From assembly GCA_038501195.1 (NCBI GenBank), contig JBBPUQ010000006.1, positions 2,604,001-2,668,000 on the forward strand: 64,000 bases of DNA, read 5' to 3'. Made by a program: the position numbers and the translations under genes. This DNA comes from Nemania diffusa. Lineage: Eukaryota; Ascomycota; Sordariomycetes; Xylariales; Xylariaceae. Under the pieces are notes generated by a model. The model was given only the letters and a program-made list of their open reading frames with translations. It was not told where the DNA came from and searched no databases. Shown piece by piece: positions 26,633 to 59,868 of this stretch. Position 1 is the first letter of the stretch, and each line of letters opens with the position of its first letter.

Positions 26633-28633
26633 ATGCCGAGATCAAGTATCGCGTCCACCTCCACCTCTAGCCGCATCAGTGAGGGAATTGTCAAGACTTA
26701 TAAACGTCGCCCGCGTAAACCGATAAGTTGTGAGCCTTGTCGGCATTCTAAGTTGCGTTGTGATCGCCAGAACCCGTGCACCTCGTGCGTACGCCGAAAA
26801 TGTGTCGATTCATGTGTATATGAACGGCCATCCGGGACCCCGGAGCAGCCAGCGCCCGCTTCGGCAGCAGCACCGTGCCAACCACAGACAGAGCACAGCA
26901 CCGCCGAAGGCATTCGGATAGCATCTACAGCCCCGGCCCCAGCTGGTATTGCAGGCATTGCAGACACTGCAGACACTGCCGTGACATCAAATGAACAAGT
27001 AAACACTAGTCCTGCCGACCTTCGGGAACGCCGTGCTTTAACTCATGAACGCTGGGAGGAAGTGCTGCAAAGGCCGATGAACCCAGATGAGCCATCAACG
27101 TTCGCGCCCGATGATGCAGTATCCCACGCTGCTGGCATCTGCTTCCCATTCCCTTCCGAGCCTCACCTTTCCACGAGCGATATCTTGGCATTGGTACCGC
27201 CAGCCCAATCATGTGACTACCTCATCTCACAGTTCTTCATGTATATGTCACAATTTTTCCCCATCTTACATGGCCCGACATTTCAGAAGGAGTATGCCGC
27301 TTTTGTAGGAAACCCTTCCACAGTTGACTTCTCTTGGCTAGCCGTGCTCTTCATGTTGCTGTCCATCGGCCTCCACACGCTCGATTACGACGGCGCTTTA
27401 CCAGCTGATATCAGCCCTAATGGCTCTACACTGCAAGGCTCGAACATGAGTACGCGGCGGTATCGCGAGGCAGCTATGATATGCTTGTCAAAAGACCAAT
27501 TCTTGACGAGATATCGGCTAAACACGCTGCAGGCGTTATTGCTCATTGTCTACGAGATCTGTCACGAGGAGGGCGTTGAGCGGGGCTGGACGCTGCTGGG
27601 TATTGCCCTGAATATTAGTATCGCACTACATTGCAATGCTGAGTCTACCCCCCTCGGCTTGAATCGTATCGAAATGGAACGCCGACGGCGCTGCTGGGCT
27701 GGCCTTCTCTCGTTGTATGCATATCAAATGGTTTCATATCCAGGCGTCGACATGTTATTTCTAGCAAACGTTACGGCAACAATGCCTGCCGATGTGAATG
27801 ATATTGACATACGCGAAGATTCCATATCACAGCCTTCTCGTCGACCGACGCAGATGTCGGTAATGATATTCAAAATTCGCCTATTCCAGCTGTCTAGTAA
27901 AATATGCCGTCACTTAAAGGGACCTAACAAGTTCGACGAGAAGACACGAGATCTATTCGATGCCGAAATAGCAGAGGAGCAGCGCCAATGGGATGCTACA
28001 TTTCTCGTGAACAATGAAGAGGTGCCCAGTCTCTTAGACTTCTCAAGCTTTGCTCATTGGTCCTTACAATTTCACGGCCATCATCTCTATCTCCTAATCC
28101 ACCAGCCTTTTTGTCGGCCGCGTTCCAACTCGACTTGCTTCCGCCAACAATCCCGGGCGAAATGTATCACTTCCGGTGCGGCTCTCTTAGAACTACACCG
28201 ACGGTTTTGGGAGGTCCCCCGACTTCGCCCTTGTCGCTGGACGATGCATGGACTGCACAGCTTCTATGCTGTTCATGGGGCAGTGGCATTAGCGTCATGC
28301 CTTCTAGAGGAAGAATCTCACATTTCAGGCTCGCTGCAATATAGGGATGCTTTCGTTGCAACGGTCAGCCGTGTTGAGAAGCTGCAGAATCGAAGCCCGA
28401 TCTGCATGAAAGCCTATCCTATTCTTTCTCAATTACAGTGGGTGTGAATTCGATACATATCGTAACTCAATAACTAAGAAAAATACAGAACCCTTCTATT
28501 TCCCGAGCAATACAAATGGCCCAACCCGGCAAACTCTACATTTCTAGAAACACTGGACACATGGGTTGATAACCTGCAGTGGCTCAATCCAAACACCGTT
28601 GATTGGGCAAGTTATCACTTACAAGAATATTAG
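26633..28633 (+). CDS. Zn2Cys6 fungal-type transcription factor
   Basis: Two exons, 26633-28443 and 28489-28633, give 651 aa. The first frame ends in a TGA at 28445, but a 45-nt intron (GTGAAT..AATACAG, with an ACTAAG branch-like word) joins it to a protein-like second exon (FPEQYKWPNPANSTFLE). The binuclear zinc cluster is C33, C36, C43, C49, C52 and C61 (CX2CX6CX5CX2CX8C), preceded by a basic stretch (KRRPRKP). Residues ~190-560 form the fungal-specific transcription-factor middle region (YLISQFFMYMSQFFPILHGP; RRRRCWAGLLSLYAYQM). Such proteins bind CGG-type DNA sites. The MFS transporter ~1 kb downstream and a UstYa oxidase gene beyond it suggest a pathway-specific regulator, by position only. 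Confidence 0.9.
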
Positions 28634-29632
28634 TGGCTATAGTACATTCTGACCACAATATAGAACTTTTTAGATGGCATATTGGGTGATAACAGCTGAA
28701 AACCCATCTTTCGAAGTAGCTGTTCTCAAGATTTTGGAGCCGATAGTGTTTGATCGACTTGGGGGGAAGGGAGAGCGTAGCGGGACCTGTTGAACCAAAC
28801 GAAATGACATATCCAGGTTCTTATCAAAGCTGTAAGAGAACCTAATCTCTAGCGAAATGATACCGTCTCTCCGAATGCATCAATTGACAAGAACTATATA
28901 GAGCATATCCATTTTCAAGTACTCAGGACGTCAGTGAGCGTTTGCTAGCCGAAGAGATCGATTAGCTAGTTACGCCTAGAAGACATTGGCGTGCCAAGAC
29001 AAATGGCTCTAGGCATATCTAGGGGGGAGGAGCATAGCTAACTCTCCACACGGAGTTACTAAGACTACGTATTGAATGAGATTATTTGGAACCTATATCT
29101 TGATCTAATTCTAATTTTTAGCCCTCTCTCGTTCGACTTGATTTCTAATCGGCTGCCCTTTTCGCAAAAGGAAACCAACAATAGCAACCGTCAGCTTCCT
29201 CTTATGTTCGGATCAGCCCCGAGACAAAGGCGATCTTGGCTTACACGGAGTTAGCTTAACCCGCTCTTAGACTCGGAGATGCGTCGCACAACTATAACTC
29301 ACCTATTTTTATATTGAAAATTTCTGCATTTCACAAATAGCTGTCTCCGATACACACTATACGCCTAATTTCTGACCGCATGACACACTATTAGGTATCA
29401 TTGATCAGCAGAATCTCCGTGTTTTGATGCTCCACATTGGGCCATAAGTCAGAGCCACAGCAAGAGATATGAAGGGTATAAGAGAAACGAAATTAAACTT
29501 GATGGGTCCCGGCTAGGGACTCGTAAACCTACAACTACGCCTGTGGTTAACGATTGGCGATTATTCGTTTTATCGATTTTTCTTGGGTTGTGTTTCTTAC
29601 GTTTACGGTCATGTACAACTGCCACTTTCGCC
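28634..29632. other. 1-kb intergenic, no gene seen
   Basis: Separates the regulator from the transporter on the same strand. No frame above 60 codons with a recognisable product. The transporter frame is open upstream of 29633 to a GTG at 29543, but the first ATG in good context is 29633. Confidence 0.45.
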
Positions 29633-31462
29633 ATGGCCTTCATCTTACAGCGGCGAGCACTTGCGAAGCAAGTCCAGTATCAGCTAGAACGAATAGCTAC
29701 TACGAAAGAGTCAATCTTAATTGAGAAGAGGGGCGAAACAGATACAGAAGCGATAGACGTCGAAGTAGGGGCAACCAACGAGTCTGCAGAGGACGTGTAC
29801 CTTGGCATTCCAGGTATCACTCGTCAAATAGATCAGGATGGTAGGTGGTATTACGATGTCGGATGGGCCGGTGAAGATGATCCTTTCAATCCCAAACGAT
29901 GGCCAACAGTAACTCGTCTTGGATCGACATTCCTCGTTTGTGTCGTCGCTTTCTTCGCCACATCGGCCAGCTCTATCGACAGTGTCATCATCGCCAGAGC
30001 TGCCGCCGAATTTGGTGTCTCTTCTATTGTCGAGTCATTGGCGACGGGCCTATTCTTAGTAGGCTTTGGCGCCGGCGCACTGCTCGCTAGCCCATTATCC
30101 GAACTAGTTGGACGACAACCTGTGTACATCGTGTCGCTCCTAGTATTCGAAGGCTGGACCATTGGCTCAGCACTCTCTCCCAACATTACTGCACAGCTCA
30201 TTTTTCGATTCCTGATGGGTGTCTCATCTTCCGCTCCTCTCACTGTCGCCGGAGGTTCGATTTCCGACATGTGGTCACCGCTCGAGAGGACCTTTGCTTA
30301 TCCGTTCTATGCCATACCAGGATTCGGCGGCGCTGTATTTGGTACGTAGAAGAGACATCCTAACCCTATACACGTATCAAGCACGTGGTAACTAATCGAT
30401 TACCTTTGGAATCAATCTAGGCCCTGTTATCGGGACCTGGATTGGAAACGACCCCAATTTGACCTGGCGATGGGTCGAGTGGTTGACTCTGATACTAACT
30501 GGTGTCTGCATCACATTGCTCTTCTTCTTGAAGCGCGAGACGTTTGCCCCGCGCATCCTTTATCTAAAGGCAGCTGCCTTCCGTAAATACACTGGAGACG
30601 CACGATTTAAAACTAGTAAAGAGGCTTCCGATGCTAGCGAAACCAGCGTGATCCTGAAGCGAAACTTCGAGCGGCCTTTTCAGCTATGCTTTGAACCGAT
30701 CGTCATAAGCTTCACAGTGTACTTGACGATAAATTACATCATTCTATTCACGTTTCTTGATGGGTAGGTCTTGCTCAATCTATCCTCTTGGTGGATTGCC
30801 TACTTATACATTGGCATTTAGCTATTCATACATCTTCGCTGATGTATACGGCATCAGTCAGAACCTGTCTAATACTGCTTTCTTGGGGCTGCTCGTGGGG
30901 ATACTGCTTCCTGTCTTCCTCCTCCCTTGGATATATAGCAGCACTGTTAAGCAGTTGCAGCGTGATGGGGATAAGGGATCTGGGGAGATGTTGAACCGCG
31001 AAAACCGATTATACTTCGCGATGATCGGGGCACCTACCGTACCAATTGGCCTGTTTTGGATGGCATGGACTGATTACGTGAGTTACCTCTCTCTACTTCT
31101 CATATCTAATTATCTATCTTTCGTCGCGAAACTAACATGTCAAGTCATTCATTTCAATTTGGTCGCCGATTCTCGCTTCAGTCCTTGTAGGGTTCGGGAT
31201 TGTGTGCGTCTTCATGTCGGCGAATATGTATATCATCGACTGTTACGAGATCTACGCTGCATCTGCGCTAACTTTCAATGCTTTGACTCGTTATATTGCA
31301 GCTGGTGCGTTCACAGTAGTTGGAATACCATTGTACGGAAATCTTGGGACACATTGGACGTTGACTCTGCTGGGGGCGATCAGTACATTGGCTGCTCCTA
31401 TCCCCTTCGTCCTATTTAAATGGGGTACTAATATTAGAAAACGGAGTAAATGGGCCTATTAA
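29633..31462 (+). CDS. MFS transporter, DHA1-type (drug or metabolite efflux)
   Basis: Four exons (29633-30341, 30421-30763, 30822-31077, 31145-31462) give 541 aa; introns of 79, 58 and 67 nt all have GT..AG ends and keep phase. The start is the ATG in GCCATGGCC context. The N-terminal tail contains the common fungal signature VGWAGEDDPFNPKRW just before the first membrane helix. Around twelve hydrophobic segments follow. SPLSELVGRQPVYIVSLL is motif A between helices 2 and 3, and the FGPVIGTWIG region resembles the antiporter motif in helix 5. The C-terminal half keeps the ANMYIIDCYEIYAASALTFN element typical of this subfamily. It probably exports a small molecule or drug by proton antiport at the plasma membrane. 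Substrate unknown; its position suggests a cluster product. Confidence 0.88.
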
Positions 31463-31989: not shown

Positions 31990-32225
31990 CTATTCTGGAA
32001 AGCGGAAGTTCTCCCATAGTGTACCATTCGGGTGACGAGGTTTGACAGCTGATGGTCCGCTGTACCGGCTAGAAGCCCATTCCCTAACCTTGCCGAAATC
32101 TCGACAAGTATGTGTTCTGTCTGAATCAATGTAGTTTTGATGGATGGAGTCATACCAACGCGTAGGAATGACGGTCATATCTGCGTTGCATTGAATCATT
32201 TGCCGTATGTGATCAATGCAATGTA
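31990..32225 (-). pseudogene. UstYa-family (DUF3328) oxidase gene, last exon, cut off by a transposon
   Basis: This is the 3' terminal exon of the gene whose first five exons lie at 45738-46592 on the same strand, 13.5 kb away. It begins after an AAATAG acceptor with HCIDHIRQMIQCNADM, which contains the second His and the Cys of the family's second HxxHC motif, and runs through TRWYD and HTCRDFGKVREWA to a TAG at 31990-31992. These are standard C-terminal features of UstYa-type oxidases. The exon starts in exactly the phase left by exon 5. The remaining 68 bp up to 32293 are the 3' part of the split intron. It is called a pseudogene because a 13.5-kb intron is unlikely to be spliced in a fungus; the exon itself is undamaged. 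Confidence 0.85.
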
Positions 32226-32288
32226 CTATTTGAGACTGTTAATAGACTACTCAAGTCACATACCCATTAGGCTCGCTACCGGTGAGAG

Positions 32289-32293
32289 CTTAC
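32289..32293. repeat. Candidate left target-site duplication (CTTAC)
   Basis: Immediately precedes the left terminal repeat; the bases after the right repeat are CTTAT (45730-45734), matching at four of five with a C/T difference of the RIP type. Confidence 0.55.
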
Positions 32294-32563
32294 TGAAACG
32301 AAGTATGTAACACACACTACGCACTCTAGAGGACTGACTACGGTTATGTAGATCATTTCTAGAGATTTGAGGCTTAGAAGAATAATAAATAAGTAACACA
32401 AATGTATATTCGGGTGTAACAAACCCCCAAAAAAAGCTGTATAAAAAGCGTGCTAACTTTTTTTAACTAGTATAAACTAACTATTTTAAATAAAAAAAAA
32501 AAAAAACTAAGTTTTAATAATTTAATTAACTTAATTTTTATATAATTAAACTATTTATATTGT
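32294..32563 (+). repeat. Left terminal repeat (LTR-like) of the 13.4-kb element
   Basis: Aligns without gaps to 45460-45729 at a constant offset of 13166. Every difference I checked along its length is a transition. Its outer (5') ~130 bp keep G and C, whereas its inner end is AT-converted. The first mismatch that is not a transition lies at 32293, which fixes the left edge. Confidence 0.88.
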
Positions 32564-35500
32564 TTTAATTTTTTCTAATTAAAATGTAGCTGTTTTTAGT
32601 ATATTTTTAACTTAAACAAATTAAAATAAAAATAAATGTAACATAAGTTTTTTAATAAACTAAAAATACAGCAGTAAATATAAAAGTTAACATATAAATT
32701 AACTCAATTTTTTTAATTTCAAAACTTAATTTAATAAATTTGTTTTTTTAATTTGTTTAATTTAATAAGCAGTTTAGTTTTATGTTACTGTTTTTACTTT
32801 TTAATTTTACAAAAAACTTTATTAGCTTTTTTAATAGTTTATATATTAATTTTATACTAATTTTAACTTTGTTATTTTATAAACGCAATAAATCGAAGTT
32901 GTTTTATTAAATTGATTTATTTTTTTTATAGCTAACAATATAAATTTTTAATATTTTTTAAAGTTAAATCTTTTGTTTTTTTAATATTAAAGTTGTTACT
33001 AAAATAATCTATAACTATAATACAATTATATTCAATATTAGCTCTATATTTAAATATATTATATTTAAGTAATAGCAGTTTGTAGTAGCTAAATCAAAAA
33101 AAAAAAAAAAGCTAGCTAATAAATATAACTAATTAATTAAAAAATAAAAAAAACAATAAAAATAATTAAAAACAGAAATTATATAAAGTTTTTATTAATT
33201 TAATACATATAAGTTTGTTAAAAAACATAACTTTTAAATTGTAATAAAATAAACTAAATATTAAGTTTAAATTATTATTTAAAAACAAAAAATCGAATAT
33301 AAATGTAAAAAATATAAAAAAAACTAATTAATATTTATTATTAAAGTTTTTTAATTTAATAAAATTAAGCTTTTTTTTAATTTTGTTTTTTTTAGCAGCT
33401 TTTTTAGCTGCTTATGTTTTTTTTTCAGCTTATAAAGCAGTAAGCTATACTTTTTAGTTTTTTTTTTAAAAAAAAAAAAAAAAACATTTAAGTTTGTTTA
33501 TAATATATATTCTAGTAGCTTTTTTTAATTTATTATAAAACTACTAAATTATAAAATATTTAGTTAATACTTGATTTTTTATACTTAAAATCGCTAGTTT
33601 TTTAAAATTTGCTAATAGTGCAATAATATAAAAAATGTTTATAAAACTGCACTTTTAACTGCTTTATTAATAAAAAAAAAATAAATAAACAAAATAAATA
33701 AAAAAAAAAATATTAAATAAATATACAAAATAAGCTATTTATAACTAATTTATATTAGTTTTTATAGCTGCTTTATTATACTACATTAAGTTAAAAATAT
33801 ATACAAGCTTTGTTTAAAAGTTAATAAAAACAGTATATTAGTAATTATACTTTTTAATATTAAATATTATAATTTTAAAAACGACTTATTAAATTTATAC
33901 GTTTTATTTTTTAATAAAAAGTTTATTAAAATTGTTTAATTTAGTTATACAATATAAACTATAATACTTTTTAATTTTAACTTCAAATAATATACTAAAA
34001 TTGTAGTAAGTTTTATTAATAAACAACTTTATATAAACTTGAATTTTTATATTAACTGTTTAACTATATTTTTTTATTTTTTATATAGCAGTAAATAAAT
34101 AATGTTTTTGTTAATTAACTTATTTTTTATTGTAGCTATATAAAAGTGTAAAATTTTTAAAAAAAAACAACGTTTTAGCTTAAAAAAAGTATAAAATATT
34201 TACAAAAATATATTTTCGAAAAAATTATAGCTATTAAAACAATTTAAATAGTTAAAATTTTTCTAAATAAAACAAGTTAATAAAATATAAAAAACTATTA
34301 ATTTTATTTTTTTATAGCTTTTTTATATTGCAACATTTATTAGTTTGTAAATTTTTTATTACTATAAACATAGTTAATAAACTAGTTAGTTTTATAAAGA
34401 TTTTTTTAATTTATTTAACTAGTTTTTAAAAAAGTTTAAAATAAACTTTATTTTTTAAAATAATTTATTTTTTATTAACTTTAAATTATATTGTTTACAA
34501 AATATATATTACAAAATTATTAACTTTTTTAGTGTTTATATTTTTTTTTTTTTTTATAATGTTAGTTATTTTAAAACAGTTTTAAAAAAGTAAAGTTAAG
34601 TTTATTAAACAAGTAAAACTGCAGTACTAGTTATTATTTTGTTTTAATAAAAAAAAATAAACTATATAGTTTAAAAATAAAAAATTAAAAAAGTAAACAG
34701 TAACATTTTTTTATTAAACGGTTTAAAAATAGCAGAATATTTTTTTATATTTTACAATAAAAAAAGTAAATATAAAAAAATCAACAAAAAAAACAAGTTT
34801 TTACAAAATATTATAAATTATAAAATACTAGTAAAAACTGCTGTAACTAATATTGCAAATATTTTTAAAAATAACTTATTAAGCTTTTTTTTTTATATTT
34901 GTTTTAATAACTTTATATAAATATATATAATTTAAAAGCTTTAAAAAAACACTACTAAAAGTAAAATTATATATAAACTTTTTTATATTATAAAAAATAA
35001 AATATATTACTATTATTAACTTTAACAAAATAAGCTACAATTGTACTTAATATTTAAAAATTATATTAATTAAAAACTCAAGTTTTTTAATTTGTTATAT
35101 TATAGTTTATTTATAATTGTTTAAAAAATTATAGTTTGTTATATGTTTAAAATTTAAAAGTAAAAATAAGTAAAAGTTGTAATATTTAATATAACAATCG
35201 AAAGTTTTAATATAAATACTAAACATTTAGCAATTTTTTTTAGTTTTTTTTTTAGTTAAACTTTTACTGTAATAAAAAGTTAAAAAAACTATTAAGTTAT
35301 TTTTAATAACTATAAGTTAAATTATATTTCTATTGCTTTTAAAGTTTAAGTATACTTTTTGCTTTAATAATACTATTATAATATAAATATAAAAATAAAA
35401 TAAAAAATAAAATTAAAAAACATATTAATTTAGTAGTTATTTGTATATAATTTTAATATTTTTATTATAAATGTAGTAATAAATAAATAAAAGTATTAAA

Positions 35501-36516
35501 ATTATAAATAAATAAAAGTATAAAAATATAAATAAAAAAAATAAAAAATAGAAAAATTTTTCAAAAAGTAAAAACTAATGCAGTAAACTTAAATAAAAAA
35601 AAAAAATAAAAGCTAACAATATATTTAAATTTAATATTTTTATTTAATAACTTTTTTTTATAACTTTTTTAATATAAAATAAATAGTAAAAAAAATGTTA
35701 CTTTTTTAAATTATTAAAAAACTTTATATAATTAATTAAACTTTTTAAACATTTTTAAAAAGTTATTTGTATTATATAAAACTTTATAGCTTAATAAATA
35801 AATAAATAGCTTTTTTTAAGTTTTTTAAACAGCTTGTAATTTTTAAGCAACAATTTTATAACAGCTACTAATACTTTAGTTTATAAACTTTCTAATTTAT
35901 ATATAAATTATTGTTTAATTAACTGCTTAATTTAACTCTTTTAAATCAAATTAAACTTTTAAAAATAGTTATATCTGCTTATTTATTAGTATATAAAGTT
36001 TGCTACTTTTATTAGTTGCTTTTTTTTTTTTGTTGAAATTTTAGCTGCTTTTAACAAATTTTAACTATAATACAACACTTTTTTAGTTTATATTTTTTTT
36101 ATTTATATAATTTTCTTTTTTAAATTAACAAATTTTTCAAGTTTTTAATAATTTTTTTTTAATATTTTTTTTTTAATAATTTTTATAATTTATTTACACT
36201 TTTTTTATAAAATTAAAAAATATACAACATTATTATATTTATTAAAAGTTACTACTTTTATATTTAAAACTAATATTTTGTTTTATTACTAAATCAAAAA
36301 GTTTTTAGTTTTTACTATTTTAATTATTAGTTTAAACTATAAAAGTTCAATAGTTTAAATATAATTAATATAGTATAACTTATTAATAAAAAAATCCATA
36401 AAATAAATTTTTTTAATATTTAATATATTATAAATATTTAAAAAACTTATTAATTTTTAGCTTTTTTAACTAACTACATTATATTTTAAATTTTAATATA
36501 TTTTTAGTTTAAAATT

Positions 36517-36786
36517 TTACATAATATTACTAAAAGTTGTTATATTTATTAAAAAATATACTTTAACATTTTTAAAAACTTTAATACTTTTTAGTTTATT
36601 TTTATAACTATTAACAAAATTTTTAATCGAAACATTATTTTTTATATTCTTTATATTAAAACAAATTAAACTAGTTTTTAAAGCAAATATATTTTTAGCT
36701 TTATATACAATTGTTATAGAACTAAAAACTTTTATATTTAATAATTTGGCATTTTTAACGCAATATTTTATAAGTTCTATAAACAC
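36517..36786 (-). pseudogene. RIP-degenerated coding remnant in the element interior
   Basis: The only frame above 80 codons in the AT-rich interior (89 codons). It is extremely rich in Lys, Asn and Ile, as expected if Glu and Asp codons had been changed by G to A mutation on the coding strand. Not identifiable; it may also be chance. Confidence 0.25.
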
Positions 36787-39700
36787 TACTTTATTTGTTT
36801 TAAAATATACAATAAAACTAATATATAACTATTTTTTAAATATATTTTAATTTTTAGTTTTATTAGTAATATTTGCAGCAATTACAAATTTACTATTTAA
36901 AAAGCTCACTATACTTAATATTATAACAATTTAACAATTAATTAATTTAAAACAAACAAATAAACTATTAAACTTAAATTATATATTTGTTTTAATAATA
37001 GCACTGTTAAATTTATTATTTTTTTTTTTATAGCTTATAAATTAACTTAAATATAAATTAAAAGTTCAACTAATAAAAAAAAATAGTTAAATTAATAAAA
37101 AGCTATTTTATTTATATATATTAAAAATTTTCAGCTTTTTATACTTGCAATGCTTTAAATATTTTTGTAAACATAATATATGCTAATTTTTAAATTAAAA
37201 ACTTTATTTTTTATTATTAATATTAAACTACTAAATTAATAAAAAATAAACTTAGTATATAAAATATAAAAAAAAAAATCGCAAAATAACTAAATACTAG
37301 CTTTATATATTGCTAAAAAATCTATTGATTTTATTATAATAATATTTTATATAAAATCTTTATTATTTAAATTTTGTTTTTTTTTTTAAATATTTAAAAG
37401 CTTTTAATTATTTTATAACTTAATAATTATAGCTTTAAACTTTTTAGTTTTTAATCGAACTGCTATTCGTTTAATAATTAGTTCTTTTTTTTTTTTGTTA
37501 TTTATATTTAAAGCTTTATTTAAATTATTTACTAGTTTAAAATTATCAATAACTTTTTTTATAGTTTATATATTTTTATATATATTTATAAATTTTTAAT
37601 AACTTTTGTTATTTTTAATAAACTTTTTAAGTTTATTTATATAAAAAGTACTTTTAAATTTAATATTATTTATATTTTTAAATTTATATTTATTTTTTTT
37701 AAAAATTTCTTTAATTTAATAAAAACTATACTATTTATAAAATAACTTTTTACTATTATTTATATTAATTTTAAACTTTTTATTATATAAAAATACTAAT
37801 ATATTTATTTATAAACAGTTTTTAATTTTATAAATGTTATATTAATTTTTAGCTTTTATTTATTTTTGCTTTTTTTAAATAATAATTTAATAAACTTTGT
37901 TAATATTTTTTTACTAGTGCTTTAATTAATAAACTTATATAATAATTATATTTTTAATACTTTTAATTTCGTTTTAATTTAAAACTTTTTATAAAAAAAT
38001 AATATTTTTAATAAATATAATAAACAATTTTTTATAAATTAGCTTATATATATTACATTTATAATATTTAATAAAAATACAATTAAATTAAACAATTATA
38101 TTTAAATAGTTTATTTAACTTTTTTTAGTACTTTTTATTAACTTTATTAAACTTGTTTTTAAAAAAACATGTTTTTTTTTAATAAGTTTCTGCGATTGTA
38201 AATAGTATATTAAACTAAGAATTAATTTATACTTTATTTTTATAGCAGCTTTTTTAACTTTTTTTTTAAACTTTAAGCTATTATTATATTTTAACTTAAT
38301 TAAAACATTATATTGTTTAAAAATTTTATAATTTAAAAACTTATAAATATTTTTAATAGTTTAATTTTTTAAAGCTTTAGTTTTAATATACTTTAAAAAC
38401 TTGCAGCAAGCTTTAACGATATACTTTTTTTTATTTTACAAAAGTATTATTTAAATATTTATAATTTAAAAAACTAAAAAATTTATAAACATATTTTAAT
38501 AGTATTTTTTTTTAAACTTACTTTTTTAAAATTTTTAATATATAGTATACAATTTAATTATTTTATAAACGTTATTATAAAGTCTTTTTTAATAGTACTA
38601 TTAAACAATTTGTTAAATAGTTTTTTTTTTTTTTTAATATATAAAGCTATTATAACAAGCTTATATTATTTGCTTTTAAAACTTTTTAGTATTTAATATT
38701 TAACAAAATAAATATTTTGAAGTTGTTTTTTTTTATAGTTTGCTATTTTAAAAAAAGTACTTTATAGTTTGCTTTTTAAAACTAGTTTTATATTAAATAC
38801 TAATTATTTTTAAAAAATATTATAAACTAATTAAAAAATAAACTATAACAAAACTTTATTAACTTTATTTTTTTGCAAGTTTAAATATTACTTTATATAA
38901 TTTTATACTTTTTAATAAGTAGTATTTATATTACTTTATATTTTTTATATTAACTAGAGCTACATTTGCAAACTAAGCTTTTTTTTCATTTTTTATTAAA
39001 GTTAAATTATAACTTTTTTAAAAGTTTTATTAATTTAACAATATAAAATTGTTAATATAAATTTATATAACATTAAATTAAATATTAATAAAATTATTAA
39101 TATTGCTTTTTTATTTGTTGTTTTTTTTGTTTAAAAGTTTTAGTAGCTTTTTTAACAAGTTATTTATTGTAATATACTTTTTTTTAACAACATAATACAT
39201 TTTAAAATCAAACATTTTAATATAAACAATTTACTATGTTAAAGTTGTATTAAATAAAACAAAAAAGCTATTATTAAATTAAACTATTAATACTTTAGTA
39301 TTAGTTTTTAAATAAAAATAAACTTTATAGAAATAATTATATAAATGTTTTAGTATTTTTATTATAACTAAATATTTTTTTTTAGTAATATTATAGTTTA
39401 GTTTTAAACTTTTTTAACACTTTAATTTATATTAAACTAACTTAACTATATTATTAATTAATTAAATTAAAATAAATTTTTATTTTTTATTAAAAGCATT
39501 TGTTTTAACTTATATAAAACTGTTTTTATAATTAATTATAACAAAAATAAAAACATTAATTAAAACATTTTTGAAAGTTTATATAGTTTTATATTAAATT
39601 AAACTTTATATAAAAGTAATGTTTTTTTAAATTAATATAATTAAAAATAAAGCAATAATTAAATAACTTTTAATTTAAATATAGTAATATACTATAACAT

Positions 39701-42700
39701 TTAAAAAAAACTTTATATATAAAAAAATAATACATTTAAACTATTTTACAATTTTAATTATTTTAACTTTTACTAGTTTTTAGCTATAAGTACTATATAT
39801 ATAGTTTATAATTTTTACTAAAAATTAATATTATTTATTTTTAGTACTATTAACAGTTAAACTAGCTAATTTAAAATTAAATAATATAATATTAATGTTT
39901 TTAATATATTTTATTATAAATTATTAAATATTTAAAATAATTTTTTAATTTTTGTAGCAAATAGTAAAACTTTTAATAGCAATATTATTAAAAAAAAGTT
40001 TGTATTTATAAAATAAAATATTATATAAAACTTTCAACAGAACTTTTAAAAAATAAACAATAAAGTTAATATAATTTTAAAACAAAATAATTATTTATAA
40101 AGTTTTTAAAAGTATAAAAAAAGCAGTATATATATAATTATATTTATTTAAAAATATTTAATTGTAACTAAAAAATAAATTAACAATTAACAAAATTTTA
40201 TATATAGCAAAATTTTTAACAAACTTATTATAACTTTTAAAAAAACTAGTATTTTTTATAAAAATATTATTTAATTTAATAATTAAATTAATTAATTAAA
40301 GCTTTTTATTTGTTTTTTTAATAATAAACTAAATATTATAATAAAAAAAATAAAACTTTTTTAATATTTTATTTTTTAGTTGTATTTTAAATATTTTAAT
40401 AACTTTTTTTTTTAATAAAACAAAAATTAAAATTTTTTTTGTTTGTTAAATTTTATAAAAAACTGTTTTAATTATATATAAAAATATAACTTTATTTTTA
40501 AATTTATTTATTTTTAAAAAGTTTTAAACTAGTACTATTTTTTATTTAAATAGAACTTTTAATAATATTGCTTTTTTTAGCTTTATAAACTTTATATTTT
40601 TTAAATTTTTTATAAACTTTTGTATTTTTTTTAATGTTAATTTAGTATTTTTTGCTACTTTAACAAACTTGGGCTAAATTTAAATAAACACTTTTAAAAA
40701 TAAAAACTAAATAAACAAGTTATAATTTAAAAATTTTAGTTTTTTTAGCGCTAATATAAGTACTAATTAGCTAATACAATTGCTGCTTTTTTATAAAATA
40801 CTAAAATTAATATTTTAAAAATATATATTATTAATATATAATTTTTAATTATATATATATTTATTTAAATTAAATAACTTGTTTTTTTTTTAATTAATTA
40901 GTACTTTTTTTTTTAATACTAACTTTTTTTAATTGTAAAATTTTAGTAGTATAAATTTATTAAATAAAACATTATTTTAAAAATTTATTTTTTTTGTTTT
41001 ATTTTTATATATTATATTAATATTAAAAATATTGTTTTTTAAAATATTAATACTATAATTAACAAATTTATTTTATACAGCTTATAGTTTTACTGTTTTA
41101 ACTTTTTGTAAAACTGTTTAAATTATTACTTTTATAATACTAACAAAATTTTCGTTTAAAAAACTTATTAAAACTTTTTTATTATTATTAAAACTAAAAT
41201 TTTTAAAATATATAAAGTTATTAAAATTAACATTTTTTTTATATAAATTATTGTTTAAAGTTATATAAAAATTTTTCAGAATTAATAATAAAAAATAAAA
41301 TAATATATAATTTTTTAATAATAACTATTGTTTATTTATTTAATAAAATAATATTTTATATTTATTTATATAAAAATTTAGTTAATTTTTGTAAAAATTA
41401 ATAATAAATTAACTTATAATTTATAAAAAGCTTTTTTTGCTATTTATTTAACTTTTTAGTAAATAAATAGTGTTTAGTTTTTTAATATATTAACAATATT
41501 AGCAATATTAACACAGGAATTTTTTTTTAACAAAAAAACAAAAACAAAAATATAAGTACTACTAAATTGCATATTATATATATAATACTTTTTGTTATAG
41601 TATAAAAATATCTATATATATATAATAAAATTTATATTTAATAAAAATAAAAAAGTTATATTTTTTAATTTAATAATATATAAAGCTAAATTAATACTTT
41701 TTTTTATTAAATAAACTTAAATTTTAATAATTTTTTTACAAATAATACAAAATAACTTTTTAATAAACTTTTTTTAAATTAAGTTAATTTTTTATATTAG
41801 TAATTAATATTTAATAATATATTTGTTTATTAAAATATTTAATTAAATTTTAATATTAATAATTATAGTAATAAGTTTGTTAATATTATTATAACTTATA
41901 ACTATTGTAAATTTAAAGCAAAACTTAATAAAATTTTCGATTGTTTTTAAAAATATAAACATTAAATAAACTATAATAACTAGTATTTTTTAAAAAAACT
42001 TTTAATTTATATATAATTAATTTAATTTTACTATTGCAACTATAATATATAAATAATCAAGTTTATTAATATTACTATTAAAGTTTAATGTTTTAGTTTT
42101 TAAAGCAATTTTAATTACATTTAATTTTTAGTTTTAATAATTTACTTATATAAATATAAAAAAGCTTTATTAATTTAAATCAAACAAAACTATTGCTATT
42201 ATATTTATAAAAAGTTTTTTATTAAATTATAAATTAATAAAATATAAAATTTTACTTAATAAAATATTAATTATTTCAATTTTTGAACTTTTTAAGTTTT
42301 AATATAGTTGTTTAATTTTTTATAACAAAATTTTAACAAATTTAAAAGTTTTTATAACTATATTTTTAATTATAAAGTTTATTTTTTTATTAAATATGTT
42401 TTTAATTTTTTTAAACTAAATATACTTAATTAATTTTTATATATTTTTAATAAAAAAAACAAATATTGCACTAAATATTTTAAAGCTTTTTTAACTAAGT
42501 TTTATATTTATTTTAATAAAGTTTTAAACTTAGTTAATAGTGTTATTATTTTAAGTTAATAAAATGTTTTAATTAATATTAATAATATTACTGTTATTAC
42601 TTTTTTTTTGTTTAAATAATTTTATATATTTAATAATAGCTATATTAGCTTATAAAATATTAATATTTAAAAAGTTTTTATTAAAAACATATTTGATATA

Positions 42701-45459
42701 TTTTTTAATATTATTTTTATTATAATATATAATTTAAAAATATTTATTTAATAAACTTTTATTTATAAAATATTTAACTGTTATAAAGCTTTTTTTAGCT
42801 ATATATATAACAGTATTTATTATATTAACTTTTTTTATTTTTAATAAATTAAGTTTTATATTTATAACATTAATTATTTAAAAGTTATATAAAATTATAA
42901 CTGTTAATAAAACTTAATTAATTTTTTTAATTTAGTAATTATAATATTTTTGTTTAAATTTTTTATTAAATTTAATAATTTTTTTAAATATAAACTAATA
43001 ATATACTTTTTAAACTAAATAAATATTTTTACTAAAACAAAAAGTATAAATTTATTTAAAAGTTTTTTTAATAATACTTTTGCTATTTTTTTTAGCTTTT
43101 TATATTATATTTAAAAAAAGTAGTAAAATTTTTTATAAAATTAAAAAAGTTTTATTTTTTAAGTATTATTTTTAGTTATAATAAATAATATTTTTTTTAT
43201 TTATTACTTATACCTATTTGTAGTTTTTAAAATAATGCTTTAATTTGCTATAAATATAACAGTTAATATTGTTTAAGCTTTAGTTTGCTTTATATTTTTT
43301 TCGGCTTAATTGCTTTTTATTACTTTTTAATTTAAAACTAGTTATAGCAAAAACATTTAAAGTTAAATTAACAAATAAAACTTTTTACAATTAAAAATTT
43401 AACTATTATAATAAAAAACTTAGTTAATATAAATAATAAAAAAGCTATTTATATAATTATATAACAAAAACATTTAAAAAAAATGCTTAATTGTTTTAAC
43501 TTTAAAAAATAATAAACTAAAAAAAAGCTAGTTTGTTTTTAATTTTAGCTTTTTTTTTTTTTATTAGTTTTATTTTTTAAATTGTAATTTTTATTTTTTT
43601 TAATTGCTTTATAACAAAATTAACTTTGTTGTTAAACTAGTTTTTAAATATAACAGTAGATTTTTTTTGTTACAAAATTATAAACTTGTTATTTATTACA
43701 ATTTATTATTAAAACTAAATAGCTTTAAATAGTGTTTAAACTGCAAAAAATGCTAAAGTATAGTAGTTTTATTAAAAAAACTATTAATTATACAAGTTTT
43801 TATTATATATATACTATATAGCTTTTATGTTTTTAGTTTTAATATTATAATAATTTAGCTTAAATATTATAATAGTTTATTTTATTAATTCAAACTATAA
43901 TTAGTTATAAATTATAATATATAAAAAGTTATAGTTTATTTAAAAGCTAATTATAATATGTTTTAATATAAACTTTTTAATACTTTTAAACAGCTTATAA
44001 GTAAAAATTTTATTATTAAAAGTTTTTTTTGTTTTTTTTATTTCTTTTATAAAAATGCAGTATTTTTTAAAGTATAACTTTATACTTTTAATAGTATTTT
44101 TTTTTAGTTTTAATTTATACTTTTTTAATAAAGTTAGTAAAAAGTATTACTGTTTAAAGTTGCTATAATTAAACGTTAGTTTAAATTTTTACTTAGTTTT
44201 TAATTAAATATTAATATTTTTAATGTATTTGTAAATAATTTTTATTTACTGTTTTAACTATATATAAATAAATAACTGTTTAACTAAGAACTAAATAAAA
44301 ATTTTTTAAACTATAAACAGTATTTTAAGCTGTTTTAACTAATTAGTAACAGTATTTTTATTAAATAATAAGTAAAAAAATATCTTTAAGTTAAAAAAAT
44401 TTAGTAAAATTATATAAGTAGTATTTTTTATATTTTTAGTAATTGAAGCTATAGCAGTTGTAGCAATAATACTACTATTATTAAATACTTTTGTACTAAA
44501 GCTTTAAATAATAAAACTAAAGTTAATATTGTTACTAAAGCTAAATTAGCAAAATGTTTTAATAAATTTGCTTAAATTTAATAATATAAATATAATAAAA
44601 ATATAAATTTATAAAATAACAAATAAAAAAATGTTTGATTTAAACAAATATAACAATATTACTAAAGTAATAAATAATTATTTAAATATATACAAAACTA
44701 TAAAATTAAAAAGTAGCAAAAGTGTTTAAATATAATAGCAGTTTTAAGCAGTTTAATAATTACAACTTAATAAACTATTAAAAAATAATAAACTTTTTAT
44801 ATTTTAATAAATTAATCTGATTTTTTTATTGTTTTATTAAATAATGTAACTAATGTTAATTTACTAATAATTAACTTGTACTTTTGTTTATTAATACACT
44901 TTTTTAAATTTAAAGTATATTTATATTTTAAAGCTATTATTTTGTATTAATAGCTTGTTACTACTACTTACTTATTTAGCTAATTATAATTTTTATTTTT
45001 AATTTATATATTTGTAGTTATAATATAGTTTTTATAGTTTAATATAGCAAAACTATATTTTAGCTTAATATACTAAAACATAACTAACTTTTTTTTGCTT
45101 CAATTTTAAAAATACTATTTTTTATATTAAGCTTTATATTTAACAGTAACTTAATACTAGTTATAACTTTTACAGCAATAAAAATAGTTTTAAAAACTTA
45201 AACTAAAACATTTAATTTTTAATATAACTAAAGTAAAAATATTAAATATTTTTTAGTTTTTACAAATATATTTTCAAAACTATTACTTTTGTTAAAAATT
45301 TTATTAATTTAAGCTTTAAAAAACTAAGTATAATAAAAAAAATAGTATTAGTTTTATTGTTTATAATATTTTGTTTTTATTTTTTTTTTTCTATTAACTA
45401 AAGCTTTAGTTTTAAAATTTAATAGTTAATATAATATAAAGCTTTATTAAAAACATTAA

Positions 45460-45729
45460 TAAAACAAAGTATATAACATATATTATATACTTTAAAAAAC
45501 TAATTACAGTTATATAAATTATTTCTAAAGATTTAAAGCTTAAAAAAATAGTAAATAAATAATACAAATATATATTTAAGTATAACGGACTTCCGAAAAG
45601 AGCTGCATAAAAAGCGTACTAACTTTTTTTAACTAGTATAAGCTAACTATTTTAAATAAAAAAAAAAAAAAACTAAATCTTAATGACTTAATCAACTTAA
45701 CCCTTATATGGTTAAGCTACTCACACCGT
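45460..45729 (+). repeat. Right terminal repeat (LTR-like) of the 13.4-kb element
   Basis: Partner of 32294-32563. Its inner (5') half is AT-converted and its outer ~140 bp keep G and C, the mirror image of the left copy. It abuts the UstYa intron remnant (45730-45737). Confidence 0.88.
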
Positions 45730-45734
45730 CTTAT
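45730..45734. repeat. Candidate right target-site duplication (CTTAT)
   Basis: Matches CTTAC at 32289-32293 except for the last base (C/T). It lies within the first eight bases of the split intron, read on the minus strand. Confidence 0.55.
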
Positions 45735-45737
45735 TAC

Positions 45738-46592
45738 TTTGATGCATGTTGCTATGAATCCCGTTTAATACGTACTCCTCTAGGTAGAATGACATTTGTA
45801 TATGGTCCTAATAATCCAAAGTTAGCGAATATTGTTGGCCGAAAACTAATAAGTCTCAAAACGAACCAAACAATGAAGAGTATGGAACATATCAAGCCTT
45901 AGCACATGTCAGCGTTGATTGTGACGTATTGCTTCTTAGAGGAACGATCCTACCCCCCAAGATAGCCTCCCCATTGGTTGTTCCAGTATTCGGTATAGTC
46001 ATCGCCCCAGGCCTCTTTTGCTTCCTCGTCGGTTAATAGAAAATAGCGCTCTATTAGATCGTTAGATACAAGCAGTGAGCACGTCTAAGAAATCTCACTA
46101 TGCGAAAGCTCCTCCCAAGCTGCATCCACCTTAGGACCTGAGCCGATGTATCTCCAGCTCGGAGATTCAGGAGGTATGTACTCTCCATTCTGTGGGTCAA
46201 AACGCGGACTCCCTGTGAATATTTTCTGTTGTATACTGGCAGCGACTCGTGCTGGGCCTAGTAATCTAGTGTTACCATATGCTATTCATTTACTATTCAG
46301 AGGAAAAGAAATGTCTTCTCATACCAAAGTCACTAGAGTATCCGGAAGAAAGCGCGCCTAAAGAATTCCTCGCTTGGATTCTTAGTATCGCGAAGGTTGT
46401 GATTGCAATTGCCATAATTATGGAAATAGTCCAAGAGAACCCTAAAATAAGCCACAGACCTTTCGTCCCCAAATGATGGTTTCGCAAGGTTCTCCATCGT
46501 AAGTGATGAGTATCGTCGTTATGTGACGTATTATCGAACTCATGAAACAGAGATCTCTCATCTTCATCATGGATTCTCGAGTACTTAGACAT
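45738..46592 (-). pseudogene. UstYa-family (DUF3328) oxidase gene, exons 1-5
   Basis: Minus-strand exons are 46592-46325, 46257-46099, 46050-45954, 45897-45867 and 45807-45738, with introns of 67, 48, 56 and 59 nt that all keep frame. With the exon at 31990-32225 they total 286 codons plus stop, a normal length for the family. Residues ~45-70 are a membrane anchor. RFDPQNGEYIPPESPSWRY and GPKVDAAWEEL are family signatures, the first HxxHC is HTLHC at 180-184, and WGDDYTEYWNNQWGGYLGG precedes it. Exon 5 ends just after the first His of the second HxxHC; the rest of that motif is beyond the transposon. UstYa proteins perform oxidative reactions such as cyclisation on ribosomal peptides and other metabolites. 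All exons are free of stops. Confidence 0.87.
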
Positions 46593-47790
46593 GATTCAAA
46601 GAGGGATAATATTCGACATCGGCCAAAACCTTGACTTAGTCTCAACATGCAGTGAGAATCGATGAGAACGTGAGCAACCAAGGTTCCAGTATGGGTATTC
46701 AAAATGAGGGGAGATGCTTCGAGCAACAAGTCGTGAACGAAGGAGCTCTATGCTATGCTCATGCAGAGTATAGATAGCTTACGGTCAACCCATATGCATG
46801 TCGGTGATACACCATCCATGTACAGACATGCGTATTAAATGCTTCTTATCATCCAATGATGTTACAGTCACACGTGTGTTGCGAATCTAGGGAGCTAAGC
46901 TGCCAAGAGATCTGTCATTCGGCTCCTCCCACCCTGCCCCTGTCCCCCGGGTTACCACGGTATAGACATCCGGTCCGGGGTAGGCGATTGATTGAACCCT
47001 AGTTGCATCGTGGTCTTATGATTCCTATCTTCATCAGACGGGCATTTGATCATCCGATATATTGTAGCTGACGCGTTCACGCCTTTTGAAGCCGAAGAGG
47101 ATTCGTGGAAGTCGCAAAATTTGTATTTTCACGCATACTGCAGCGGTCGTAAAACGCGCGCGATTCTGTATGTCTCAGTAATAAGAAGACCTCCGTAGAC
47201 GCCACCCACCGAGTCCTAGAGTCTTAAGCGATGAGACCGAGCTCGGTACGCAAACGACTGCGAGACAAACACATCGAGCCATGGGTTAGCGCTCTATTAG
47301 GATTGTCGAGTTTTTCATACTCGCTTAATACTCTACATGAATCGTATGACTACCAAGTCTAGACAGTAGTCAAGCTTGATAGCGACTAAAGTATTGGTAG
47401 CCTGCAGAGCGAGGAAGAGTCAAGTAGCGATTGACAAGAAATCCAAGGAAATAACCCTTATTTATCGGTGCGTTAAAATACTTAATTCTTAGGATTTTCT
47501 AACTTGGTCTAAGTAGATATTTGTAGTATTACATATCAACTATCTACTCAAGTGCTGTATCATGCCCAGTGCCGGTGAAAGTCATATTATCTAGATTCGC
47601 ATACGCCGGACCAAGTGTAGGGTGGATTAATAGACCAGGCTCAAACACATTCACTCGCCTATCACGCGACCACTCATAGATCGCGTCCCAGTTCACGCAT
47701 TCATATAGATAGATAGATAAATGGATTGTCTTTAATGTCTAGGGTTTAAACTGCATAGCAGTTAGTTCTAGCTTCCGCAAAAGCACTATA
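46593..47790. other. Ordinary-composition island between two AT-rich blocks
   Basis: Contains the former promoter of the UstYa gene; no other gene is seen. A short TAGA microsatellite lies at about 47706-47718. G and C content falls sharply from about 47770 onward. Confidence 0.5.
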
Positions 47791-50700
47791 AACATAGCTA
47801 ACTGTTCACTATTTTACTTTATATATATAGTAGCTTTAGTAGCTATATTTTTACTTTATAAACAATTAAGTTATAACTTTATATTTACTTCAATTAAAAC
47901 TTTTATATTTTATATATTTAGTTTATTTAAAAAAACATAATATAGTTTATTTAATAATATAATATAGTTTAAATAAATTAATAATATATAAAAAAATAAA
48001 CTTTTTTATATATTATATCTAATTTATTTATATTTATAAAGTTAAAAAAAATATTATATTTAAAAAATTAAAAAATAGTATTAAATAATTTTATTAAATA
48101 TAATTTAAATAATAAAAATAAATTTTATAGCAATAAAAATATTTAAAAATATTTAAAAGTATTAAATAAAATATATAAAATAAAAAATATAAAAAATAAA
48201 AAATATAAAAACAAAAAATATAAAGTAGAAAAAAAAATTAAAATATAAATATTAAAAAGTTTTTTTTTTAAAAGAAAAAACAAATAAACAAAAAAAAAAT
48301 TTAAATAAAAAAATGCTATAATAGTACAATATTAAAAAATAAACAAAAAAACTAAAATAACAAATATTAGCAAAAAAAAAAAAGAAAAAAAAAAATATTA
48401 AAGCTATATAACAAACTTAAAATAAAAAAATAATAGCTTTTAATAATAAAAAAAAAACAAAAGTTAAAAAAGTTGTTTATTTTTTTAATAATAAAAAAAA
48501 TAATAACTTTTTTATTATAAATATAAAAGTAAAAAATTAGCAATTTTTATAAGCAATAATAAAAATAAATATTGTTATTAGTTAATTAAAAAAGTTCAAA
48601 AATTTAAAAAAATTTTTTTTTTTTTTTTAATAATAATATATTAAAGTTATAAGTTTTTAAAACTTTTTTTAAAAGTTAAAAAATAAGTTTAAAATTTATA
48701 GTTTTAAAACTAATTTAAAACTAATAAATATTTATTTTAAATAAGTTTTTTTATTTAAAATAGTTTTAAATAAGTTTTTTTATTTAAAATAAAATATATA
48801 AAATAATATATTTATTTAATTTTTTTTTTAAAAATATTTATAACTAAAAATTTTAGTTTTATTTAAAATTTAAAATTTTATTTAAAAAATTAATATAGTT
48901 TATATTTTTAATATTATATATTAAGTTATAATATTTTTTATAACAATTATTTATTTTATTATAAAAAAATTTAATAGTTTATTTATTATTAATATTATTA
49001 AACTAGTTTTAATAATAATTTAAAATTTATATATATTTTTTTTAAATAATTAAATTAAAGTTTATTTAAATTTAAAAAAAAAAACAATAAATTAAAAATT
49101 TCTATTTTAAAATAAATTATATAAAAATTTAATTGTAATAAATAAAAATAAAAAAAAGTTTTTATAAATAAAAAAAGTTTTTAATATATAATTAAAAATA
49201 GTTTTTTTTAAAATAAAACTTTTTAAAATTATTACTATTTAAAATTTAAATATATATTTATTATTTTATAAATAAAATTAAAATAATTATTTTTAGTTTT
49301 AAATTTTTAAAATTTAAGTTTTTTTTAAAAGATTTTAAATAACTTTTATAATATATTTTTTATATTATAAATAAAAAACATATTTTAATAAAATATTTTA
49401 TAGCTATATAAAACTTTTAAAATTTTTTAAAATTTTATAATAGCTATATAAAATAGCTATTATATTTATATAAATTTTATAAACTAGTTATTTTTTTTTA
49501 TTTTTAACTATTTTATTTAAATTTAAATTACAATAGTTTTAATTAATATTATTATTAATATTATAAATTTATATAATATATTAAATAGTTATAAGTTTTA
49601 AAATAAAAATTTTATTATTTATTAATTTTTTTATATAAATAATATTTTTTAGTTTTATAATAATAAAATTTATTATAATATTAGTTATAGTTTTTATAAT
49701 TTATTAAATATTTAAAATATTTATTTAATATATTTTAAAAAAGTTAAAAAGTTTTTAAATAATAATTTAAAATATATTTAATTTTAATTGTTTTATAGCT
49801 ATAAAATTAAATAATTTTTATATTTTTGCTTTTTTTATTTAATATTAATAAATTATTATTTTATTAAGTTTTTGTTATATTTTTAAAAATTTATTTTGAT
49901 ATAAATTTAATATTTAATATTATAAACTATATAAATTTAAAGTTAAATTTTTTTTTTAACTATATTTTTTATAAATATATTTATTTTTTTATTATTTTAT
50001 ATATTTATATATTTTAAGCATTATTTAAATTTAATATTATATTTTTTTATTAATTTATAAATTTAAATAAATATTTTTTATAAAATAATTAAAGTATTTT
50101 TCTGAAAAAATTAAATTATAATTATATTATTAATATAAATTATAATATTATTTATTAAATATATTTTTACTACTTTTTAAAAACTTTTAAAAACTTTAGT
50201 TTTTTTAATATTAAATATATTTTTAATTAAGTTTATATTTTTATATTTTTTAACTATTTTAGTTAGTTTTTTATAAATAATAAATTTATATTTAAATTTA
50301 TTATTTTTTATTTTAAAATTATTTAAAAATATAATTATATTAAAAATTAATAAACTTTTAAATTATTTTTTAAACTATATAAAAATAGTTTTTTTATTTA
50401 TTTTATTTATAAGTTTTTATAATAAGTTTAAAAAATAATATAAAAAATAAAACATTAGCTTTTTTATTTTTAAAAGTAATTATTTTATTAGCTATATATT
50501 TAATTTTTATTTTTATTAATAGTTAATATTTTTGTTTTAATTAATAATTTTTAAGTTTATTTTAATAGCTAAAAAGTAACTTTTTGCTACTATATTAATT
50601 TAATATATAAATTTTAGTTTAGCTTTATTTAATATAAATTAAATTATTAAAAATTTATTATTTATAAAAAAAGTTATATTAAATTATATTTTTTATATTA

Positions 50701-53700: not shown

Positions 53701-53998
53701 CTATAAAAAAGATATTTTTTGCTATTATTACAAATTAGTTTTTTTTTATATATTTTTAGCTTTTTATATATTTAATTATTTAAAGTTTTATTTTTATAAA
53801 TATAATTAGCTTTTTATTAATTTTATATAACTTAATTAAATATTTATTATAACTTATTAAAAATAAGCTATAATAGTTTATATATTTAAATAGTTTTATA
53901 TAAATATTTATTTTATAGTTTATAATATAATTGCTACAATTTTTACATTAAAAATATCAGTTATAATATTTAGCTATATAATAGCTTTAATAATTAAA

Positions 53999-54003
53999 GT
54001 TTT
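53999..54003. repeat. Left target-site duplication, GTTTT
   Basis: Identical to 59864-59868. A perfect 5-bp duplication at the exact ends of the paired LTRs. Confidence 0.85.
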
Positions 54004-54308
54004 TGTTAGTAGAACTTTTTATATATATATAAAAAAATTTAAAGTAATTTATAAAATTTAAAGTTTATTTTTAAGTTTTAAAGTTCTATATTAATTTTAT
54101 ATATATATTTTATAAAAAAAAATATAATTAAAAAAGTTATATATAAGTTATTTATATATATATATATATAAAACTTATAAATTTTATAAATTTTAATAAA
54201 TTTTTATATTTTTTATTTATTTAATTATTTAATAAAAGTTTTAGTTTAAGTTTTAATTATATATATTTAATATATATATATAAGTTTTATTAAATTATTA
54301 GTTTAATA
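54004..54308. repeat. Left LTR of the 5.86-kb retrotransposon
   Basis: Aligns to the right LTR with a constant offset of 5555 except for a 4-nt difference in a TA microsatellite near its start. Only its first ~12 bp keep G where the right copy has A; the rest is fully AT-converted. Confidence 0.88.
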
Positions 54309-59863: not shown

Positions 59864-59868
59864 GTTTT
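59864..59868. repeat. Right target-site duplication, GTTTT
   Basis: Identical to 53999-54003, directly after the right LTR. Confidence 0.85.

What the first reader, a model, noticed from the sequence alone, without database searches (positions are those of the whole stretch)
31990..46592. A UstYa-family oxidase gene is split by a 13.4-kb transposon sitting inside an intron, three bases past the 5' splice site
Seen in sequence: five minus-strand exons at 45738-46592 and one at 31990-32225 join in perfect phase (286 codons), with family signatures on both sides. The second HxxHC motif is itself divided, first His at the end of exon 5 and second His plus Cys at the start of exon 6. The intron donor is at 45737 and the element begins after only eight bases, five of which are the target duplication. 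Inference: the gene was functional before insertion and is probably dead now.
Basis: partly seen in the sequence, partly recalled or inferred. Interest (0 to 1): 0.88.

Follow-up and report, generated by a model that had tools for sequence, protein, structure and literature searches.

The report
Fungal UstYa gene split by retrotransposon
A fungal gene for a peptide-modifying enzyme has been cut in two by a long, mutation-riddled jumping element that landed exactly on a splice signal, so the gene is probably dead; this is a clean example of a familiar kind of event.

Summary
Window 45738-46592 (five exons) and 31990-32225 (exon 6), both minus strand, are parts of one UstYa/DUF3328 gene. Each part alone hits PF11807. 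In 10 of the 11 relatives that match both parts, the parts align exactly one residue apart. Two other UstYa genes of this genome have an intron at the same place. The insert is a 13,440-bp LTR retrotransposon (32294-45733) with 274-bp LTRs. Other copies show a 4-bp, not 5-bp, target duplication. Here it is TTAC, read GTAA in the gene: the first four intron bases, so the 5' splice site itself was duplicated and the exon-5 copy lost its G at +5. The LTRs differ by 58 transitions and no transversion, which points to RIP on a recent insertion. Beyond the window, across a 27-kb AT-rich block, lie an intact second UstYa gene and a four-repeat Kex2-type precursor gene. The split gene probably belongs to a dikaritin-type RiPP cluster. 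Loss of function is inferred, without expression data. Ordinary in kind, unusually clean.

The parts
46325..46592 (-). exon 1 of the split UstYa gene (start codon, hydrophobic membrane-type segment by eye)
   Evidence: Pfam and relatives
46099..46257 (-). exon 2
45954..46050 (-). exon 3
45867..45897 (-). exon 4, first HxxHC (HTLHC)
45738..45807 (-). exon 5, ends with the first His of the second HxxHC
45734..45737 (-). target duplication copy 1 = first four bases of the intron (GTAA); now followed by TA of the LTR, so the G at +5 is lost
45460..45733 (-). LTR, 274 bp (5' LTR if the element reads in the gene's direction); the part lying towards the element's interior carries most of its RIP-type changes
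32568..45459 (-). interior of the retrotransposon, 11% G+C, RIP indices TpA/ApT 1.35 and (CpA+TpG)/(ApC+GpT) 0.49
39276..39515 (-). remnant of a retroelement RNase H domain (PF17917, 25.5 bits, cut-off 24.8, six stops); hits at the same relative place and strand in two of the eight other full-length copies compared
32294..32567 (-). other LTR, 274 bp; its outer 91 bp show no RIP-type change relative to its partner
32290..32293 (-). target duplication copy 2 (GTAA), followed by GC (GTAAGC)
32226..32293 (-). the native intron, 68 bp, GTAAGC...AATAG
31990..32225 (-). exon 6: second His and Cys of the second HxxHC, C-terminus, stop
29405..30346 (+). neighbouring open stretch with a major facilitator transporter match (PF07690); the rest of that gene was not modelled; possible cluster member
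26633..28447 (+). neighbouring Zn2Cys6 transcription factor (PF00172, PF04082), possible cluster member
47750..64000 (.). start of a second AT-rich block (3-9% G+C per kilobase from 48001 on) that runs to about 11 kb past the window end; separates the split gene from the second UstYa gene

Best explanation
A 13,440-bp LTR retrotransposon, probably of Ty3/Gypsy type and probably in the gene's own reading direction, inserted right after the first four bases (GTAA) of the last intron of a UstYa-family oxidase gene in a fungus close to Xylariaceae. Integration duplicated those four bases, which are the 5' splice site. Each side of the element now carries a donor core, but the exon-5 copy reads GTAATA instead of GTAAGC. 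RIP then riddled the element with C-to-T changes, leaving its two outer rims nearly clean. Shown: the gene, the element, its ends, the duplication, the one-sided mutation pattern. Inferred: RIP as the cause, exons 5 and 6 no longer joined, and any product stopping five residues after exon 5 inside the LTR, without the second HxxHC Cys and the C-terminus, so that the enzyme step is lost. The gene probably belonged to a dikaritin-type RiPP cluster with the intact second UstYa gene and the repeat precursor beyond the window.
For: Gene: (part A matches 14 of 14 relatives, part B 11 of 14; in 10 of those 11 B begins exactly two residues after A ends). Intron at the same place and phase in a paralogue on C1 and in the second UstYa gene; 15 of 52 PF11807 exon hits in the genome, the finding's own included, start at profile 159-169. 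Element ends and 4-bp duplication. Recent insertion: 58 transitions, 0 transversions, no gap. Type and direction: RNase H remnant at the same relative place in 3 of 9 full-length copies. Read-through stop. Cluster. A homologue of the second UstYa gene shares the contig length of the first gene's homologue in Xylaria sp. FL0043 (184186) and Ustulina deusta (481305, tags 298728 and 298731).
Against: No RNA data; removal of the large intron is not excluded. The intron in the second HxxHC is not universal: 8 of the 52 exon hits run across that position in a frame without a stop. No reverse transcriptase or integrase hit lies inside the element, and 6 of the 9 full-length copies show no RNase H hit either, so type and direction rest on weak hits. 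The C contexts of the 58 LTR changes are broad (CT 21, CA 19, CG 9, CC 9), not the pure CpA of textbook RIP (recalled). The precursor found no relative (0 hits among 1297 candidates). Linkage rests on equal contig lengths and tags for 2 of the 14 first-gene relatives; the other 12 have no second-gene relative on a contig of the same length.
Confidence: 0.9

Rival explanations
1. The gene still works: the 13.5-kb intron is removed, using either copy of the duplicated donor, and a normal enzyme is made.
For: Both parts are intact and open, the intron's 3' end is untouched, and a donor core (GTAA) remains at exon 5.
Against: The gene's four other introns are 48-67 bp. The exon-5 donor lost G at +5, which 7 of 8 other donors that I read by eye keep (four, three, one; the paralogue's other donors were not counted). 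The element is 11% G+C with RIP-type indices, a state usually silenced (general knowledge).
Confidence: 0.05
2. A shortened protein of exons 1-5 plus five LTR-encoded residues is made and has some role.
For: The frame runs from exon 5 into the LTR and stops after SNKTV. In another UstYa gene of this genome a solo LTR of the same family supplies the last six residues (ETVWVT) and the stop.
Against: The second HxxHC, found in all signature genes of a lichen survey and suspected to be part of the active site (PMC12048977, passages), would be broken.
Confidence: 0.12
3. The split is an assembly error or two unrelated UstYa fragments lying near each other.
For: The genome holds 52 PF11807 exon hits, so stray fragments are possible.
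Against: Matching phase, adjacency in 10 of 11 relatives, matching target duplications and paired LTRs at both joints, and a contig of 4.6 Mb.
Confidence: 0.02

Closest known systems
UstYa/UstYb family (DUF3328, Pfam PF11807) of dikaritin RiPP clusters
   Same: Pfam hits on both parts, two HxxHC motifs, a partner UstYa gene and a Kex2-type repeat precursor nearby
   Different: One copy is interrupted; the pair lies 28.6 kb apart across AT-rich DNA; tyrosinase and methyltransferase genes were not searched for; the precursor (repeat DYIFIDLPDKR) matched nothing
Fungal LTR retrotransposons under RIP, e.g. crapaud of Podospora anserina (PMC10787394, passages read)
   Same: Full copies RIP-mutated and solo LTRs frequent
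   Different: LTRs 274 bp here against 339-443 bp in that paper; a 4-bp, mostly NTAN duplication; a reciprocal left/right mutation pattern in nine of nine LTR pairs compared, which I did not see described in the passages read
Transposons associated with fungal secondary metabolite clusters (e.g. PMC5576322, title and start of abstract in the listing only)
   Same: Transposable elements lie at and around such clusters
   Different: Here the exact base of insertion in an enzyme gene can be read

Membership tests
UstYa / DUF3328 (PF11807) | profile match above the curated cut-off | tested here: met
   58.0 and 56.4 bits for the two parts, cut-off 25
UstYa / DUF3328 (PF11807) | two HxxHC motifs | tested here: met
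   HTLHC in exon 4; the second read by eye across the exon 5/6 phase
Dikaritin RiPP cluster | precursor with signal peptide and repeated cores between Kex2 sites near UstYa genes | tested here: met
   L073:3834-4178, four repeats ending DKR, 1.3 kb from the second UstYa gene; signal peptide and Kex2 sites judged by eye only
Dikaritin RiPP cluster | UstYa pair linked in relatives | tested here: inconclusive
   Equal contig lengths in 2 of 14 first-gene relatives, near tags in one; contigs not fetched
Dikaritin RiPP cluster | tyrosinase and methyltransferase genes (part of the older definition quoted in PMC12048977) | not tested
   open stretches of L073 and L074 were listed but not scanned with a family library
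Dikaritin RiPP cluster | product made and cyclised | not testable with these tools
   needs chemistry
LTR retrotransposon | paired terminal direct repeats TG...CA | tested here: met
   274-bp LTRs, no gap, 79% identical with transitions only; TG...CA in many other copies; in the window the final CA reads TA
LTR retrotransposon | short target duplication | tested here: met
   TTAC both sides; exact 4 bp in 19 of 20 solo and 8 of 9 full copies
Ty3/Gypsy superfamily | RT, RNase H, integrase in that order | tested here: inconclusive
   RNase H remnant in 3 of 9 copies; RT and integrase not seen in the element

The most novel reading that the evidence does not exclude
RIP stops short of the edge of homology. 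In nine of nine full-length copies compared, the outer part of each LTR keeps its C and G while the same letters in the partner LTR, lying inside the element, are mutated. Each LTR pair is thus a natural experiment that separates position relative to the homology edge from sequence. It suggests that a site needs roughly 60-200 bp of homology beyond it to be mutated, so every RIP-killed element keeps two nearly clean rims.
Probability: 0.55. Interest if true: 0.55.

Novelty: new member of a known kind. Interest (0 to 1): 0.42.

Why it matters
It is a base-exact record of how a retrotransposon probably silences a biosynthetic gene: the duplicated target is the splice donor itself. It probably also marks a dikaritin-type RiPP cluster, with a precursor that matched nothing in the one search made, that AT-rich DNA has dilated by about 40 kb (and the 13.4-kb element). 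The LTR pairs give a self-controlled measure of how RIP behaves at homology edges, and warn against dating such insertions by raw LTR divergence (79% identity here, with no transversion).

Tried and rejected
A 5-bp duplication (TTACT or CTTAT) was considered and rejected after reading the ends of other copies. A near-zero native intron, which would follow if the left element end lay near 32230, was rejected because homology to nearly all other copies begins at 32282-32296. Preference of the family for splice donors: duplications are NTAN in 16 of 19 solo copies, and GTAA is simply one such site, so no special targeting is claimed. Preference for UstYa genes: 2 of 81 listed LTR starts lie within 250 bp of the start of a UstYa hit (31 merged loci), but one of the two is the finding itself, so I claim nothing. 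Blast of the element against the next AT-rich block gave only low-identity matches (about 58%) that I take for composition. The PDB sequence search with exon 6 gave nothing. The precursor search gave nothing. Paper searches: UstYa with transposon insertion (7 papers, off topic), LTR at a splice donor with RIP (12 of 49 listed), RIP at edges (none, 10 of 11 listed, 10 of 16 listed), LTR and Xylaria. By title and abstract start I recognised none as the same observation. I read passages only of PMC9233826, PMC12048977, PMC7329392, PMC8403587, PMC10787394 and PMC12543289. An ungapped edge profile was misaligned in some pairs and was replaced by the gapped one. Possible further full-length pairs on C5 and C9 were not compared.
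Full report
What was checked. I re-derived the gene model from the sequence. Five minus-strand exons (46592-46325, 46257-46099, 46050-45954, 45897-45867, 45807-45738) have introns of 67, 48, 56 and 59 bp; one exon lies at 32225-31990. Each part alone is a UstYa protein by Pfam, covering profile positions 18-150 and 168-220.

The two parts are one gene. Of 14 relatives found with part A, all match A and 11 match B; the three misses are short proteins of 124, 145 and 188 residues. In 10 of the 11, A ends at its last residue and B starts exactly two residues later, leaving room for the one codon divided by the intron; in the eleventh (P0013), A aligns short of its end. The best relative, of Xylaria sp. 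FL0043, is 62% identical over A and 79% over B. A genome-wide search with part A found the gene itself, a paralogue on C1 with exons 42-62% identical, and one 31% match on C8.

The divided motif is an older intron, not an effect of the element. A paralogue at C1:1060232-1061420 and the intact second UstYa gene have a phase-1 intron at the same place inside the second HxxHC. In the whole genome 15 of 52 PF11807 exon hits, the finding's own included, begin at profile positions 159-169, near the same junction. Against a universal intron, 8 of the 52 run across it in a frame without a stop (both counted from its table).

The element. A direct repeat of 274 bp bounds it: 32294-32567 and 45460-45733. 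Other copies fix the ends as TGAAAC...GTCTCA on the window's plus strand, with RIP-type variants. Of the LTRs I read as solo, 19 of 20 have an exact 4-bp target duplication, 16 of these 19 of the form NTAN; the twentieth (L029) has CTAT and CCAT. Of nine full-length copies compared, eight have exact duplications and one differs by a single C/T. In the window the duplication is TTAC at 32290-32293 and 45734-45737. Read in the gene it is GTAA, the first four bases of the intron.

Effect on splicing (inference). The donor at the far side is GTAAGC; the copy at exon 5 is GTAATA. Seven of eight other donors that I read by eye carry G at +5. Reading on from exon 5 gives SNKTV and a stop within the LTR. 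Loss of function is therefore likely but untested.

Type and direction. An RNase H remnant (PF17917, 25.5 bits against a cut-off of 24.8) lies at 39276-39515 on the minus strand. Hits at the same relative place and strand occur in the C3 and C8 copies: 6982, 6993 and 6992 bp from the LTR start (distances worked out from its table). The other six of the nine full-length copies show none. So the element probably reads in the gene's direction. No RVT_1, RVT_2 or rve hit falls inside it; the two RT searches did find other, stop-ridden elements. Five other full-length copies measure 13.38-13.46 kb and three 19.3-20.4 kb (places), so about 13.4 kb is the family's usual size.

Age and RIP. The two LTRs differ at 58 of 274 positions, all transitions, with no gap. 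Over nine full-length pairs there are 501 transitions, one transversion and two single-base gaps (windows of 276 bp for the eight others), on 274 bp, counts 501 and 0. Ordinary mutation has therefore hardly begun, and raw LTR divergence would badly overstate age. Positions are reciprocal: within the first 78 bp from the left edge, 1 change is on the left LTR and 164 on the right; within the last 59 bp, 2 are on the right LTR and 172 on the left. The stretch without any change at the outer edge is 56 to 203 bp long in the 18 LTRs. Caveats: changes shared by both LTRs are invisible in pairs. The window's right LTR differs by two C-to-T steps in its last 17 bp from the pattern that I took from other copies, so the rims are nearly, not wholly, clean. 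The mutated C contexts are broad: CT 21, CA 19, CG 9, CC 9, against CT 38, CA 21, CG 15, CC 11 counted in the two less mutated halves. CpA is hit most often per site, but not alone. Nine pairs come from one family in one genome.

Surroundings. To the left lie a stretch with an MFS transporter match and a Zn2Cys6 regulator. To the right, normal DNA ends near 47.7 kb and an AT-rich block runs to about 75.1 kb in window numbering. Just beyond it, a second UstYa gene (C6:2679174-2680032, minus, four exons, open, HDLHC and HARHC) is followed by a gene for a 115-residue precursor, secreted by the look of its start, with four repeats of the type EADxDYIFIDLPDKR (C6:2681333-2681680). The best homologue of the second UstYa gene, in Xylaria sp. 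FL0043, sits on a contig of 184,186 bp, the same length as for the first gene's homologue. In Ustulina deusta both sit on contigs of 481,305 bp with tags 298728 and 298731. I take this as a sign of linkage, not proof. Published descriptions of dikaritin clusters, with precursor repeats, Kex2 sites and UstYa homologues, fit (PMC9233826, PMC7329392 and PMC12048977, passages read). Other genes of such clusters were not searched for.

Verdict. A confirmed, ordinary kind of event with unusually clear anatomy.

Noticed in passing
own genome C6:2681333-2681680 (L073:3834-4178): Repeat precursor peptide gene (four EADxDYIFIDLPDKR repeats) next to an intact UstYa gene, just outside the window; no relative found in the one protein search made.
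   Followed up: partly
own genome C2:1315985-1316258: A solo LTR of the same family sits at the end of another UstYa gene; the reading frame runs from the gene into the LTR, which supplies six residues and a stop.
   Followed up: partly
window 32294-32567 and 45460-45733, and eight other full-length copies: Reciprocal RIP-type changes in LTR pairs: outer parts nearly clean, inner parts mutated; 501 transitions against at most one transversion in nine pairs.
   Followed up: yes
own genome C14, C15, C16: Several reverse transcriptase hits sit in open frames reported as about 4,000 to 19,000 codons without a stop; unexplained, possibly masked stretches or an odd repeat array.
   Followed up: no
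own genome C12, C13: Many reverse transcriptase hits are interrupted only or mainly by TGA, as might be expected of a mitochondrial genome with intron-coded proteins.
   Followed up: no
own genome C10:3771284-3772006: A Copia-type reverse transcriptase match in an open frame of 2,041 codons, so an apparently young Copia element exists in this genome.
   Followed up: no
window 23109-25066 (+): HMG-box match in a stretch with a long run of imperfect repeats (LPESNNTGANNN type); it lies in two open stretches.
   Followed up: no
window 47750-64000: AT-rich block with G+C as low as 2.8% in one kilobase, a near-complete loss of C and G.
   Followed up: partly
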